Below, piece after piece: positions 38,976-42,970 of a DNA stretch of 43,587 nucleotides. The notes beneath the pieces are model-generated. The model was not told the origin of the DNA and did not search any database. It was given only the letters and a program-made list of their open reading frames with translations. Made by a program: the position numbers and the translations under genes. The stretch is from Oscillospiraceae bacterium (lineage in GTDB: Bacteria; Bacillota; Clostridia; Oscillospirales; Oscillospiraceae): contig JAFXAQ010000047.1 of assembly GCA_017516925.1 (NCBI GenBank), forward strand, positions 1 to 43,587, given 5' to 3'. Numbering within the stretch: position 1 is the stretch's first letter; each line of letters begins with the position of its first letter.

Positions 38976-39626
38976 ATGCTTGATATTTCCACACTGAAAT
39001 TTGACGAAAAGGGTTTGATTCCTGCAATTGTGGTGGATTCTGTCACCAAAAAGGTACTGACCCTCGCCTATATGAATAAGGAAAGCCTGGAAGTTTCTAT
39101 GGAAAAGGGTCTCACCTGCTTCTGGAGCCGTTCCAGAAACGAGCTGTGGCTCAAGGGTGAAACCAGCGGTAACTACCAGCACATTGTATCCATCACCGCC
39201 GACTGTGACAAGGATGCCTTGGTGGTCGTTGTGGAAAAGGATGGTCCTGCCTGCCACACCGGTTCTGATTCCTGCTTTACAAACCCTGTATGGGAAAGTG
39301 AAAGCCTGCAGGAGTTCAGCCTTCAGGGGCTGTATGATATGCTGGTGGGCAGAAACGAAACCCGCCCCGAGGGCTCCTACACCACCTATCTTTTTGAAAA
39401 GGGTATTGATAAAATCCTGAAAAAGGTTGGCGAGGAATGCACCGAGGTCATCATTGCCGGTAAAGCCGACGACAAAAAGGAGACTATCTACGAGCTGGCA
39501 GACCTTGCCTATCACGCAATGGTGCTGATGGTGCAGATGGGCATTTCTGTGGAGGACATCCACAAGGAGCTTGCCTCCCGACACATTATTGACCACAAGG
39601 TAAAGCAGGAGAAAATGACAAAATGA
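38976..39626 (+). CDS. hisIE: Bifunctional PR-AMP cyclohydrolase / PR-ATP pyrophosphohydrolase
   Basis: This 216-residue protein joins HisI and HisE. Residues 1-105 are the cyclohydrolase ([20 protein letters not shown] near 45, then DCDKDALVV and CHTGSDSCF with metal-binding Cys/Asp). Residues about 115-216 are the pyrophosphohydrolase ([36 protein letters not shown]). It performs steps 2 and 3. The ATG at 38976 has AAGGAG nine bases upstream; an out-of-frame shadow begins earlier. Its stop overlaps the ATG of the hisK remnant (ATGA). Confidence 0.95.
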
Positions 39627-39727
39627 TCCCCTCTAATTACCACACCCACACTACCTTTTTCGACGTCAGCACAGGGCCGAACACTTACTCTTCGGCTACG
39701 ACATATACAAGCTCTATGTCAATATAA
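39623..39727 (+). pseudogene. hisK: hisK (histidinol phosphatase) remnant, truncated at island boundary
   Basis: The ATG at 39623 overlaps the hisIE stop in the same ATGA pattern used through the operon. It reads [14 protein letters not shown], which is the start of PHP-type histidinol phosphatases (HTHTTFCD-like with the metal-binding His pair). After about residue 14 homology ends and a Thr/Ser-rich unrelated stretch runs to TAA at 39727. The full protein would be about 250-280 residues. The rest was not recognised anywhere to the right edge of the window. The breakpoint marks the left limit of the accessory island. Insertion or deletion both fit. Confidence 0.8.
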
Positions 39728-39733
39728 GATACA

Positions 39734-39771
39734 AAGACACCCTATGACTTTTAACAGTCATAGGGTGTCTT
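39734..39771. terminator. Strong terminator after the his operon
   Basis: AAGACACCCTATGACT and its exact complement form a 16-bp stem around TTTAAC, followed by CATTTTTTC. It probably ends the his transcript, and lies just past the hisK breakpoint, so it may belong to the inserted DNA. Confidence 0.88.
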
Positions 39772-39794: not shown

Positions 39795-40030
39795 TGTCGT
39801 AAATCGGTTTTTGTCGGGTTTCAAAAACCCTGTAATACCGCTATTTTACGGCATTTTCTTAATCAAGGGGCTTCCTTGTGGGGAATATCTCAGTATGTTT
39901 CATAACCTCTCATAACCCCTCATATGGTGTCTAAACAACCTATCAATAACAGCATTTCACATATCTGCTCATAGTCTGCTCATATCCTGGCATAAAACCT
40001 CGGGCGATTGGGGTAAAACTGGGATAATTT
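39795..40030. repeat. Degenerate direct repeat, left flank of the island
   Basis: The stretch 39772-40075 has no gene. In order it contains GGCATT...AAGGGGCTTCCTTGTGGGGA (39850-39894), several CATAACC/TCATAA phrases, the 13-mer CTCATATGGTGTC (39919-39931) and GGGGTAAAACTGGG (about 40010). The same phrases recur in the same order and orientation at 42680-42970. Together they bracket the three-gene cassette and look like an element end or attachment region that has diverged. Confidence 0.65.
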
Positions 40031-40075: not shown

Positions 40076-41257
40076 TTACAATACTATTCTAGAGTCCTCC
40101 CGAATGCTCACTGACGGTCTATATTTGTAAAACCATTCTGCATTTTCCGTGTGGACGGGAATAATTATTGGGGGACAGACCTTCTCAATAATCTGGTCAA
40201 TTGTAAAAGCATCTGCATGCCCACTGGTATGTAGAATATGAACCTTAACTCCCTTGGCTACCATAAAACCAAGGAACTCCTGCATTTCTGATTGCTCCAT
40301 ATAGCCCTTCCACATACCGTAGAATAAAACACCATCTTCAAAACTGACGAGTTCATTCAGTTTTGAAAGGTAGTTTTTCATTGACTGCCTTATACACATC
40401 AGAAACGAGGTTTTGGCAATCTGGTGCTTGCTGATTTTTACATCATTAAATACTTGCAACTGCTCATACTGCTTGTCGCCACCAGTCATAAAAACTCTGG
40501 CCTTCGGAGACAAGACATCACAAGACTTTGCAATCTGCGCAGTGTAGATATCCTGCAACAGAATCCTATCAGTTTGGTCTGCAATATTTTGAGCAGTAAT
40601 CAGTCTATCGATATTTTGAGCAGACATCATAATAAATGCGGGACCGCTTTTGCCTTTGAGGTAATCGATGGCAATCTGCTCCAGTAACTCTTCCTGGATG
40701 TTGCCTTTGTTCTCACGAGAGAGCGTTGTGCCTTCTGTTATCAAAGCATCTACAACAGGCAACTCATTCAAAAGCGCATCAAAATCGAGCCTTCCATTGG
40801 CACGGAAGTCGCCTGTATAGAGAACCTTCTTACCACCATTCTCAACCAAGAACATATAACTATCGAATGCAGAATGGTCGCATAGGTATGGTGTAATCGA
40901 GAATTCTCCAATAACAATTTTCTGTCCGTCATAGATATAAGTCGGTTCAAACGGAAGTTTTTTCTCACGGTACTCTGATGCTGCGGAAATAATCCCATAA
41001 GCCCTCTCACCCATATATACAGGAATGCCTTCCAACAAATACTCAGTTAGACCAATATGGTCTGCATGGTAATGAGAAATAAACACCCCATCACAATGGG
41101 TATCACCACAGAAAAGGCCGTCTATTTGTGGGACTTCAACTCTTTCGCATTCTGAGAGGTTTATACCAATGTCAAAGAATAACCGTGTTGTCCCATCCGA
41201 TATTTCGATTATCGAACCACCAATTTGGTTCTGGCCTCTATGTATTTGGATAATCAC
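40076..41257 (-). CDS. RNase J-like metallo-beta-lactamase/beta-CASP protein
   Basis: This 393-residue protein has the MBL zinc motif HYHADH (residues 62-67), further ligands H128 and D150 in YTGDFRANG, and beta-CASP-type features: acidic motif A TEGT (E175), motif B TSGHAD (H347) and motif C PVHTE (H369). This set defines RNase J/CPSF-type nucleases acting on RNA, or related DNA hydrolases. It is shorter than RNase J (about 550) and lacks its C-terminal domain, so it is a divergent stand-alone member. The start overlaps the upstream membrane-protein gene by four bases (ATGA), implying joint synthesis. It is the last gene of the cassette. RNA is the more likely substrate; the role may be defence or toxin. 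Confidence 0.85.
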   Translation of the reverse strand: MIIQIHRGQNQIGGSIIEISDGTTRLFFDIGINLSECERVEVPQIDGLFCGDTHCDGVFISHYHADHIGLTEYLLEGIPVYMGERAYGIISAASEYREKKLPFEPTYIYDGQKIVIGEFSITPYLCDHSAFDSYMFLVENGGKKVLYTGDFRANGRLDFDALLNELPVVDALITEGTTLSRENKGNIQEELLEQIAIDYLKGKSGPAFIMMSAQNIDRLITAQNIADQTDRILLQDIYTAQIAKSCDVLSPKARVFMTGGDKQYEQLQVFNDVKISKHQIAKTSFLMCIRQSMKNYLSKLNELVSFEDGVLFYGMWKGYMEQSEMQEFLGFMVAKGVKVHILHTSGHADAFTIDQIIEKVCPPIIIPVHTENAEWFYKYRPSVSIREDSRIVL

Positions 41258-41895
41258 GACTTGTTCCTCGCAATGAAGAGCAAAATGGTATAATCAATCA
41301 GCGATACAAGCGCATTGATATCATCATCGGTTTCTATCGGCTTGTTGAACTTTACATGTAATTCGTAGTTCTCTTTATTTTGATTGGGTGTAACCTCGTA
41401 TTTATAAACATTCGCTAACCGTGTAGCAATTTGATTTGCAATTTCAGAGGCATTGAACTCATTTCCACCTTTTTGGTCGAAGAAGCTTTTGTTGATGTAG
41501 AACCGAATCTCTTCGGGTTTGTTTTCGGCCAATTCAAAAATTCTCTTGTAAGATTTTCCCGTTTGAGAGAAAAGCACATCGGAATTGCTGGCAATGTTGT
41601 ATCTGATAACACCCTCTTTTTTATCTTCAACCAGAAGAGGATTATACTTTTCTTTGATACTATCCATCGCCTTATTAAACTTCGCCTTAAAATTAACAGG
41701 TTTACGAATAAATGCACTTGCTGCAATAAACAGTACTAACACATCAATGAGAACACCAGAAATGTCCTTGATACCACCTACAACGTTTTCTTTCGCAAAG
41801 CCTCCGAAAGCAACTTCGCAGACAATAGCAATCAATGCCATAGCAGCCAATATGCCTGCTAATAAATCGTGCTTCTCTTCAATAAACTTTTTCAT
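41254..41895 (-). CDS. Two-helix membrane protein of unknown function
   Basis: This 213-residue protein has two hydrophobic helices near the N terminus (LLAGILAAMALIAIVCEVAF, about 11-30; ISGVLIDVLVLFIAASAF, about 45-62). A cytoplasmic domain of about 150 residues, rich in Lys, Asn and Glu, follows, with no recognised family. The hairpin of two helices and large soluble tail resembles membrane-anchored effectors or sensors of defence modules, but this is only an analogy. It overlaps the MBL gene and is two bases from the nuclease gene, so all three are translated together. Confidence 0.75.
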   Translation of the reverse strand: MKKFIEEKHDLLAGILAAMALIAIVCEVAFGGFAKENVVGGIKDISGVLIDVLVLFIAASAFIRKPVNFKAKFNKAMDSIKEKYNPLLVEDKKEGVIRYNIASNSDVLFSQTGKSYKRIFELAENKPEEIRFYINKSFFDQKGGNEFNASEIANQIATRLANVYKYEVTPNQNKENYELHVKFNKPIETDDDINALVSLIDYTILLFIARNKS

Positions 41896-41897
41896 AA

Positions 41898-42590
41898 TTA
41901 TTTCTCCACTCTGTATATATTGTTTTCTTTTTCTATGTAGTAAGGCTTGCTGTCCAGCAGTTGCATCAGTTTGAAAAGGTTCGGTCTTTGTTCCTGCATC
42001 TGTTGGTGCTGAATACCATTTTTGAAAACAAATGGGCTTGCCTTGATGGTTGTGTCCACAGGTAATGCAAAATCAGTCAATAATTTATCCTTATCTACGG
42101 TCTGCATATATGTGAACCCTTCAAGCACACAACGGAGCATACTTTCTTCGCTATCAGGCTTTTTAAGTTCCAAAATATACAGTGTGCTGCCATCATATGA
42201 AAGCAAATCAACTTTTCCTGCAACATCTGAACGCTTGTTTTTTAGCGGTGTCTGATAGTCAATAATATCGCCTATGTGATTGTACATAAACCCGCGCTGA
42301 GATTGATTAAACATCTCCATTGCTATTCTTTCTTCTTCACGGGGTGTATCTGCATCAAAGATACCGTCGTGTCCTTTGGTTCTGTATGGCGCTTCACGAG
42401 TGATTTTGGGAATCCCCTCTACAAATTCTGATAAATTATTGCACAGGAACTCCGCAATGACCTCAGTATATAACTCGTCTGTATCTTCCGTCTTTCCGTT
42501 ATAATTGATGAATAGTTGCTTATAGAAGGTCTTGATGTCGCCAAATGCTTGTTGGCATTTTCTTATAATCTCTTCTTTGGAATATCCCAT
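41898..42590 (-). CDS. PD-(D/E)XK nuclease-like protein
   Basis: This 230-residue protein contains a restriction-nuclease core: GKVDLLSYDG (D128) followed by LYILELKKP (E141, K143), then an acidic/helical segment EESMLRCVLEGFTYMQ (E157). The spacing D-x12-E-x-K is typical of PD-(D/E)XK nucleases. No DNA-recognition domain is identified. It is the first gene of the cassette; the ATG at 42590 is preferred to in-frame GTG codons to 42602, with GGGTGG upstream. DNA cleavage is likely but not proven. Other members of this fold act in recombination or repair. Confidence 0.75.
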   Translation of the reverse strand: MGYSKEEIIRKCQQAFGDIKTFYKQLFINYNGKTEDTDELYTEVIAEFLCNNLSEFVEGIPKITREAPYRTKGHDGIFDADTPREEERIAMEMFNQSQRGFMYNHIGDIIDYQTPLKNKRSDVAGKVDLLSYDGSTLYILELKKPDSEESMLRCVLEGFTYMQTVDKDKLLTDFALPVDTTIKASPFVFKNGIQHQQMQEQRPNLFKLMQLLDSKPYYIEKENNIYRVEK

Positions 42591-42643: not shown

Positions 42644-42679
42644 AAGAGGAGGTATCAAGCCAACTTGATACCTCCTCTT
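42644..42679. terminator. Perfect hairpin upstream of the cassette
   Basis: AAGAGGAGGTATCAAG and its exact complement form a 16-bp stem around CCAA. It lies about 55 bases before the nuclease gene and may insulate the cassette from rightward neighbours, or serve as a regulator. Confidence 0.75.
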
Positions 42680-42970
42680 ATTGATATGTCGTTTAACGGC
42701 TGGGGTAATACTGGGGTAAATTACACCAGTTTCAACAAAGAAAACCGCAGGAATAAAGGCATTATTAGTCCAGGGGTTTCATCGTGGGGATAGAGAGAGG
42801 GTTTGGCATAACATCTCATAACCTCTCGCTCAACCTCATAACTTCCCTTGAAAACAGTGGTTTTTCGGCGATTCTCATAATCTCTCATATGGTGTCAGAA
42901 CGCCGCACATCCTCTCGGATATCATGGGTAATTTCTGGGTAAAATGGGTAATCTGTGGGTAAAATCCAGT
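42680..42970. repeat. Degenerate direct repeat, right flank of the island
   Basis: No gene is seen in 42603-43398. This part repeats the left-flank phrases in the same order: GGCATT...CCAGGGGTTTCATCGTGGGGA (42758-42790), several CATAAC/CTCATAA phrases, CTCATATGGTGTC (42884-42896), then repeated GGGTAA(A) units to about 42968. Tandem TGGGGTAA phrases also stand at 42700-42720. The remaining 42971-43169 is AT-rich without visible features. Confidence 0.65.

What the first reader, a model, noticed from the sequence alone, without database searches (positions are those of the whole stretch)
40076..42590. Candidate undescribed nuclease/membrane/beta-CASP three-gene system
Seen: three leftward genes joined by an ATGA overlap and a 2-base gap encode a PD-(D/E)XK nuclease-like protein (D128, E141, K143), a two-helix membrane protein with a soluble domain of 150 residues, and a divergent RNase J-like MBL/beta-CASP protein (HYHADH, H128, D150, E175, H347, H369). 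The block is AT-rich, lies between degenerate direct repeats and breaks hisK. Known: defence modules often pair nucleases with membrane proteins and sit in such islands. I do not know this three-gene combination as a named system. The function is inference.
Basis: partly seen in the sequence, partly recalled or inferred. Interest (0 to 1): 0.82.

Follow-up and report, generated by a model that had tools for sequence, protein, structure and literature searches.

The report
Mobile nuclease pair with swapped membrane protein
Three neighbouring bacterial genes encode two predicted nucleic-acid-cutting enzymes and a membrane protein; they have moved between species as one small unit in which the membrane gene alone was exchanged, which looks like an undescribed anti-virus module, although its function is untested.

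Summary
The three genes are real: a PD-(D/E)XK-type nuclease, a two-helix membrane protein and an RNase J-like MBL/beta-CASP protein. The predicted catalytic residues are invariant in all 19 nuclease/MBL pairs aligned. The conserved core is nuclease plus MBL: a candidate PD-(D/E)XK gene lies beside the MBL gene in 32 of 39 loci from the window's phylum, Pseudomonadota plasmids and viral contigs. The membrane gene occurs in 7 complete trios (6 distinct), all apparently Clostridia.

The window copy looks like a 2.9-kb cassette bounded by imperfect repeats of the lysS 3' end, a known type of integration site. A copy 95-96% identical in DNA sits at lysS in a genome whose own his and lysS DNA is only about 70% identical. 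Between these two copies the membrane gene alone is unrelated in DNA (25% amino-acid identity).

Best reading: a mobile anti-phage or anti-mobile-element module, a fast-changing membrane sensor or tether coupled to two nucleases. Mobility, co-inheritance and catalytic conservation are shown by sequence. No library model searched and no paper listed by nine searches describes the combination.

The parts
41898..42590 (-). PD-(D/E)XK-type nuclease, 230 aa (E86, D128, E141, K143)
   Evidence: ORF; catalytic residues invariant in 12, 16 and 19 aligned relatives; only sub-threshold profile hits to NERD, Cas4 and a phage exonuclease over this region
41254..41895 (-). Two-helix membrane protein with variable soluble domain, 213 aa
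   Evidence: ORF; no family above cutoff; 25% identical to its counterpart in L003 although both neighbouring genes are over 95% identical
40076..41257 (-). RNase J-like MBL/beta-CASP protein, 393 aa, motif C = His369
   Evidence: Pfam Lactamase_B_2 and RMMBL above cutoff; nearest solved sequence 2az4, then RNase J; ten motif positions invariant in 19 of 19
39869..39885 (.). Left boundary repeat of the cassette (lysS-end-like 17-mer, 1 mismatch)
   Evidence: homology with a second end copy (L037) starts at window 39863
42775..42791 (.). Right boundary repeat of the cassette (lysS-end-like 17-mer, 3 mismatches)
   Evidence: homology with the L003 copy, which is joined here to lysS, ends at window 42790
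40009..40027 (+). Paired TGGGGTAA motif inside the left end (possible recombinase arm site)
   Evidence: also in L040; role inferred
42701..42719 (+). Paired TGGGGTAA motif inside the right end (possible recombinase arm site)
   Evidence: also in L040; role inferred
42644..42679 (-). 16-bp hairpin before the nuclease gene (insulating terminator or leader)
   Evidence: present in L003
42807..42901 (+). Left-end-like repeats outside the right boundary (possible remains of a tandem element)

Best explanation
A mobile anti-phage (or anti-mobile-element) module. Shown by sequence: a nuclease/beta-CASP pair with intact active sites, inherited together over long distances, here joined by a membrane protein that is exchanged as a unit, on a small cassette that moved recently between species. 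Inferred: the membrane protein holds the complex at the envelope and its variable soluble domain senses an infection cue or an invader protein; this releases the PD-(D/E)XK nuclease, predicted to cut DNA, and the beta-CASP enzyme, predicted to cut RNA because its motif C is His. The outcome is destruction of invading nucleic acid near the point of entry, or shutdown of the infected cell.
For: Catalytic residues invariant in 19 of 19 pairs and identity matrices of nuclease and MBL correlated (r=0.71, 0 of 5000 permutations as high; without the window's close group r=0.52, 17 of 5000). Nuclease-type gene beside the MBL gene in 32 of 39 loci, 24 of 31 among loci found by the MBL gene alone. Carriers are plasmids, viral contigs and loci with recombinases or transposases nearby. 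The cassette is 95-96% identical in DNA between genomes that are about 70% identical at his and lysS. Membrane gene exchanged in both directions: window/L003 and L009/L008. Membrane protein found with strong score only in the three trio genomes of 391. Defence genes beside some copies: KAP NTPase of the PDC-S20/QatA/PifA kind (L007), type IIG restriction genes (L018), DUF262-type genes (L025) (DUF262 name from the record). Motif C His as a sign of RNA substrates: PMC3095777, passages.
Against: No function was tested. The PADLOC scan of neighbours (112 proteins, 88 families matched) did not differ clearly from neighbours of housekeeping RNase J (98 proteins, 75 families matched). The nuclease has no family hit above cutoff, and the second nuclease group (UP2) rests on its motif; its profile link to the first is weak. 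Most pairs lack this membrane protein, so it cannot be essential to the core. Structure prediction could not be run.
Confidence: 0.5

Rival explanations
1. A maintenance (addiction) or toxin-antitoxin-like module of mobile elements: one nuclease is harmful, its partner or the membrane protein restrains it, and loss of the element is penalised.
For: Compact, tightly spaced genes on plasmids, phages and small cassettes.
Against: Both enzymes keep full active sites, neither looks like a small antitoxin, and the restraining part would be the hypervariable membrane protein that most pairs lack.
Confidence: 0.17
2. A nucleic-acid processing or repair pair that serves the carrier element (for example end processing, or turnover of transcripts), without a defence role.
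For: RNase J-like enzymes process RNA in general (background knowledge); in viral contigs the pair lies among phage genes (by eye).
Against: The same pair is carried by unrelated plasmids, phages and a cassette too small to encode replication genes; a processing role does not explain the exchange of the membrane gene.
Confidence: 0.15
3. The three genes are the mobilisation machinery of the cassette itself.
For: The cassette has defined ends and no integrase gene.
Against: Relatives sit in plasmids and viral contigs; exact core and arm patterns were found only in the window and in the genomes of L003 and the window's own lysS among the loci scanned; nucleases of these folds are not known to me as site-specific integrases; the window genome's lysS has a true integrase beside the same core.
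Confidence: 0.05
4. The apparent exchange of the membrane gene is an assembly artefact of metagenome bins.
For: L003 is a metagenome bin with coverage near 2 in its title; the window genome is a draft, 83.55% complete in 67 contigs.
Against: The switch lies within 18 bp of the gene boundaries with intact frames on both sides; a second case runs the other way in L009/L008; a chimera would still need both variants beside near-identical genes.
Confidence: 0.06

Closest known systems
RNase J and the uncharacterised beta-CASP structure EF2904 (PDB 2az4)
   Same: MBL plus beta-CASP fold by sequence, all motifs including His motif C; 2az4 is the nearest solved sequence (E 1.5e-40), RNase J next
   Different: 393 aa against about 550; scores 48.6 bits against a cutoff of 400 for RNase J; mobile and paired with a nuclease
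MBL nuclease-protease pairs of Hachiman, AVAST, Lamassu, DRT and canu loci (PMC12799240, passages)
   Same: An MBL-superfamily nuclease as a partner gene in mobile immune loci
   Different: Those nucleases resemble DNA-uptake nucleases and are activated by a trypsin-like protease or caspase; here the MBL is RNase J-like and no protease gene is in the trio
CRISPR type VII Cas14 (beta-CASP effector)
   Same: beta-CASP nuclease fold; weak profile hit (20.1 bits)
   Different: Cutoff is 800 bits; no Cas partner in the trio
NERD/Cas4-like PD-(D/E)XK nucleases
   Same: D..ExK core; sub-threshold hits of the window nuclease (E 0.0016 and 0.019)
   Different: No match above a cutoff; different partners
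Integrative elements at the 3' end of lysS (PMC4701971, passages)
   Same: Short repeats taken from the lysS end
   Different: Here a 2.9-kb unit without integrase, and the window copy is not at lysS
Kiwa and RexAB (recalled, not searched)
   Same: Membrane protein coupled to a cytoplasmic effector or sensor in anti-phage defence
   Different: No homology tested; this system has two nucleases

Membership tests
MBL/beta-CASP nucleases | Motifs 1-4 (D, HxHxDH, H, D) and A, B, C (E, H, H) | tested here: met
   All ten positions invariant in 19 of 19; motif list from PMC3095777 passages; Pfam Lactamase_B_2 and RMMBL above cutoff
RNase J (TIGR00649, NF047419) | Score above the curated cutoff | tested here: not met
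   48.6 bits against 400 and 46.8 against 820
PD-(D/E)XK nucleases | Conserved E, D and ExK positions | tested here: met
   E86, D128, E141, K143 invariant in 19 of 19
PD-(D/E)XK nucleases | Restriction-endonuclease-like fold | tested here: inconclusive
   Only sub-threshold profile hits; structure prediction unavailable
Any defence system modelled in PADLOC-DB 2.0.0 | Profile match of its proteins | tested here: not met
   No hit at E<=1 for membrane and MBL proteins; nuclease best E 0.0016
Anti-phage defence system (functional sense) | Protection against phage | not testable with these tools
   Needs experiment
Anti-phage defence system (genomic sense) | Enrichment of defence genes nearby | tested here: inconclusive
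   112 case against 98 control proteins, 88 against 75 PADLOC families at E<=1e-10
Hachiman/AVAST-type MBL nuclease-protease pairs | Protease gene or fusion beside the MBL gene | tested here: not met
   The partner proteins show no protease family in Pfam or PADLOC
CRISPR type VII (Cas14) | Score above the curated cutoff of NF045584 | tested here: not met
   20.1 bits against 800; CRISPR array in the window not searched for
Integrative element at lysS | Repeats of the lysS 3' end at both ends of the element | tested here: met
   Two imperfect copies, 1 and 3 mismatches, at the homology edges; 2 of 100 shuffles of the window had as many matches
Integrative element at lysS | Own integrase gene | tested here: not met
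   Only the three genes lie between the repeats; one would have to act in trans

The most novel reading that the evidence does not exclude
A previously undescribed, cross-phylum two-nuclease immune module (PD-(D/E)XK plus RNase J-like beta-CASP) that in Clostridia has gained a plug-in membrane sensor. The sensor gene is exchanged as a cassette between otherwise near-identical copies, so that the range of infections sensed is re-programmed by gene swapping, comparable to specificity-subunit exchange in restriction systems but at the membrane.
Probability: 0.3. Interest if true: 0.82.

Novelty: new variant of a known kind. Interest (0 to 1): 0.62.

Why it matters
If the inference holds, it adds a widespread pair of predicted DNA- and RNA-cutting enzymes to the list of mobile immune modules. 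It also supplies a natural experiment: two near-identical copies that differ mainly in one membrane gene, so the role of that gene could be read by comparing the phages each copy stops. It would suggest a function for a beta-CASP group whose nearest solved structure (2az4) is labelled hypothetical. If it is not defence, it is still a conserved, mobile, catalytically intact system without an assigned function.

Tried and rejected
Core housekeeping RNase J locus: rejected; patchy (8 of 398, 9 of 391 and 4 of 394 genomes by the nuclease, own genome included), mobile, and far below RNase J cutoffs. Pair confined to one lineage: rejected; for the trio, all complete cases are in one class. Trio as the cause of hisK loss: not supported. 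Other copies of the right cassette flank in the window's own genome: none found. E. coli genomes: no DNA match. Viral scan with the nuclease alignment: 144 pattern matches, no relative. Nuclease in phage records: none; in plasmids: 1 record. Membrane protein in plasmids and phages: none at E<=0.01. Defence enrichment with PADLOC: inconclusive; its models also matched what look like transposon and reverse-transcriptase genes in the control. Literature: nine searches ran; I saw their listings (15, 11, 3, 3, 4, 12, 10, 12 and 9 rows), and passages only of PMC12799240, PMC13092281, PMC4701971 and PMC3095777. None described this pair or trio; the library lacks most subscription papers and preprints.

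Rows dropped or seeded before counts: L093 (99.99% identical to L092) and L090 (a 38-residue match) were left out; L079 was scanned but has no MBL hit, leaving 39. L076/L077 are near-identical, and L075 and L089 are broken copies; all were counted. Six UP2 genes (L021, L023, L024, L085, L086, L087) were put into that profile by hand because they lay beside the MBL gene, so their hits are by construction; the profile then found five more (L018, L019, L020, L096, L097). L085 shows no significant BLAST link to the other five. Of 25 plasmid records with an MBL hit, 9 were opened. The neighbour test used 23 of the 39 loci, at most the five nearest ORFs of 150 aa or more each.

Full report
WHAT IS THERE. 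Three minus-strand genes run nuclease, membrane protein, MBL from window 42590 to 40076. Nuclease stop and membrane start are 2 bases apart; membrane stop and MBL start overlap as GTGA. The block is 39.7% GC against 49.3% for window 1-39600. A 16-bp hairpin precedes the nuclease (42644-42679) and a terminator-like hairpin (39734-39771) lies left of the cassette.

PROTEINS. The MBL protein matches Lactamase_B_2 and RMMBL above Pfam cutoffs but is far below the RNase J and Cas14 cutoffs. The nearest solved sequence is EF2904/2az4 (E 1.5e-40), then RNase J. Its residues fit the motif list given for an archaeal beta-CASP protein in PMC3095777 (passages): D29, H62/H64/D66/H67, H128, D150, E175, H347, H369. 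That paper cites Callebaut et al. 2002 for His in motif C as a sign of RNA substrates. The nuclease has no family above cutoff; sub-threshold hits to NERD, Cas4 and a phage exonuclease overlap its D128..E141-x-K143 region, and a PDB profile search gave no convincing relative. The membrane protein has no family above cutoff in the four libraries.

RELATIVES. Scanning genome contigs with the MBL protein gave 7 loci: 5 of 7 have the nuclease upstream; the other two are cut there by a contig end (L006) or lie beside a transposase gene with a truncated membrane gene (L008). The nuclease hits 8 of 398 genomes of the phylum, 9 of 391 of the class and 4 of 394 of the order, own genome included; the four same-genus genomes listed lack it. 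An MBL profile hit 22 of 398 genomes at E<=1e-30; nine of these stand clearly above RNase J level (my reading of the score gap: 1.5e-66 or better against 2.3e-36 or worse), and 8 of the 9, the window included, have a neighbouring nuclease gene. The plasmid search hit 25 records; of 9 opened, 7 have a candidate nuclease beside the MBL, and one, Butyrivibrio pCY186, has the window-type nuclease. Viral contigs gave 7 loci; of 6 examined, 4 have a nuclease, one of these on the opposite strand (L092). In all, 32 of 39 loci, and 24 of the 31 found by the MBL gene alone, have a NUC- or UP2-type gene within about 1.1 kb. UP2 is a second group; its D..ExK pattern is present in 11 of 11, but six members were seeded by hand and its profile link to NUC is weak, so its PD-(D/E)XK status rests on the motif. 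Without a nuclease hit: L006, L008, L025, L026, L089 (broken MBL), L091 and L094; the last two show nuclease-like stretches by eye only.

CO-INHERITANCE. For 19 NUC/MBL pairs the identity matrices correlate (r=0.71, 0 of 5000 permutations as high); without the window's close group r=0.52 for 12 pairs, 17 of 5000. All ten MBL motif positions and the nuclease E, D, E, K are invariant in 19 of 19.

THE MEMBRANE GENE. Complete trios: window, L003, L004, L009, L076, L077 (near-identical to L076) and L102. The class is inferred from record titles (Oscillospiraceae, Clostridia) and from kinship to the window. In 391 genomes of the class, strong membrane-protein hits occur only in three trio genomes; 8 further hits are weak and partial. 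Window against L003: nuclease 95.7%, MBL 97.7%, membrane protein 25% amino-acid identity. DNA identity in 150-base windows is 87-99% in the nuclease gene and 90-100% in the MBL gene but about 45-56% across the membrane gene; homology stops 18 bases into the membrane gene and resumes at the MBL start. The opposite case is L009 against L008: membrane protein 99% over 131 residues, MBL 83%, with a mosaic of 70-98% along the MBL gene. Among non-identical pairs the helix region is 23-49% identical and the soluble domain 14-30%. A different, zinc-ribbon-like transmembrane segment (by eye) is fused to the MBL in L102 and encoded separately between nuclease and MBL in L103. So membrane attachment recurs in more than one form, while most pairs have none.

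MOBILITY. The window and L003 cassettes are 95-96% identical in DNA, but the two genomes are only 70% and 68% identical at his and lysS. The sites differ: beside the his operon in the window, at the end of lysS in L003. The his site of the L003 genome has no cassette and an intact hisK. A 17-bp core at window 39869 and 42775, 2,906 bp apart, is the complement of the lysS 3' end. The two copies share 13 of 17 bases and match the pattern with 1 and 3 mismatches; two or more such matches arose in 2 of 100 shuffles, but these lie at the edges of homology: the L003 match ends at window 42790, and a second end copy at a contig end of the L003 genome (L037, 89% over 132 bases) begins to match at 39863. 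The left end of the L003 cassette is off its contig, so both repeats are seen together only in the window. The window genome's own lysS is followed by a Tn916-type integrase and a gene matching SIR2-containing defence models. lysS ends are known ICE targets with repeats of 13-17 bp (PMC4701971, passages). Left-end repeats recur outside the right core (42807-42901), suggesting a tandem insertion. Other copies lie within a few kb of an integrase (L102; fragment in L009), serine recombinases (L091, L096, L102, L103), or DDE, rve or UPF0236 genes (L005, L008, L104).

FUNCTION. Conserved active sites argue for two working enzymes. Carriage on many kinds of mobile element argues for a benefit that travels; defence is a common one (background knowledge). 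Defence genes lie beside some copies, but the controlled scan did not show enrichment (112 case against 98 control proteins, 88 against 75 PADLOC families). Exchange of the membrane gene alone is what one expects of a part that meets a fast-changing opponent, though other causes of allelic exchange are possible. I commit to a membrane-sensing or membrane-tethered two-nuclease immune module at 0.5, with addiction and carrier-serving processing as rivals.

NOVELTY. The four family libraries do not name the combination, and nine literature searches listed no paper on it. The domains are known kinds; the combination, and the cassette-like exchange of a membrane subunit, appear new within what I could search.

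Noticed in passing
L039:648-5240 (window's own genome, contig C28): The lysS 3' end of the window's genome is followed by a Tn916-type integrase and an 891-aa protein matching SIR2-containing defence models: another candidate defence element at the same kind of site.
   Followed up: partly
window 39623-39747: hisK remnant after hisIE: 14 N-terminal codons match an intact hisK, the rest is lost or weakly similar.
   Followed up: partly
L018:6510-6986, L019:6552-6947, L020:8256-8630, L026:6549-6992: A small protein family of 124-158 aa (28-42% identical to each other) lies beside the MBL gene in four alphaproteobacterial plasmids and may be a third component there.
   Followed up: partly
L021:8221-8865 and L025:8449-9018: A metallophosphoesterase-type gene (name from the records) directly follows the MBL gene in a Cereibacter and a Prevotella plasmid.
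   Followed up: no
L102:8187-9986 and L103:6643-7011: A zinc-ribbon-like transmembrane segment (by eye) is fused to the MBL protein in L102 and encoded as a separate small gene between nuclease and MBL in L103, followed there by a 202-aa gene with a helix-turn-helix-like end.
   Followed up: partly
L081:11938-13719 and L079:4328-8955: Reading frames that look like CRISPR repeat arrays (L081) and type III CRISPR-like genes (L079), judged by eye, lie near a nuclease copy.
   Followed up: no
L081:8728-10029 and L088:7043-7756: The nuclease carries an extra N-terminal region of about 190 aa in L081; L088 has a similar protein that ends early in the nuclease domain.
   Followed up: no
L075:7974-8966: An intact-looking nuclease gene is followed by an MBL gene reduced to its C-terminal 102 residues: a decayed copy.
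   Followed up: no
L018:9224-9430 and L025:6767-6934: Small repeat proteins with YVYD-like strands (one similar protein in L025's record is named 5-fold beta-flower) lie close to the MBL gene in two plasmids of different phyla.
   Followed up: no
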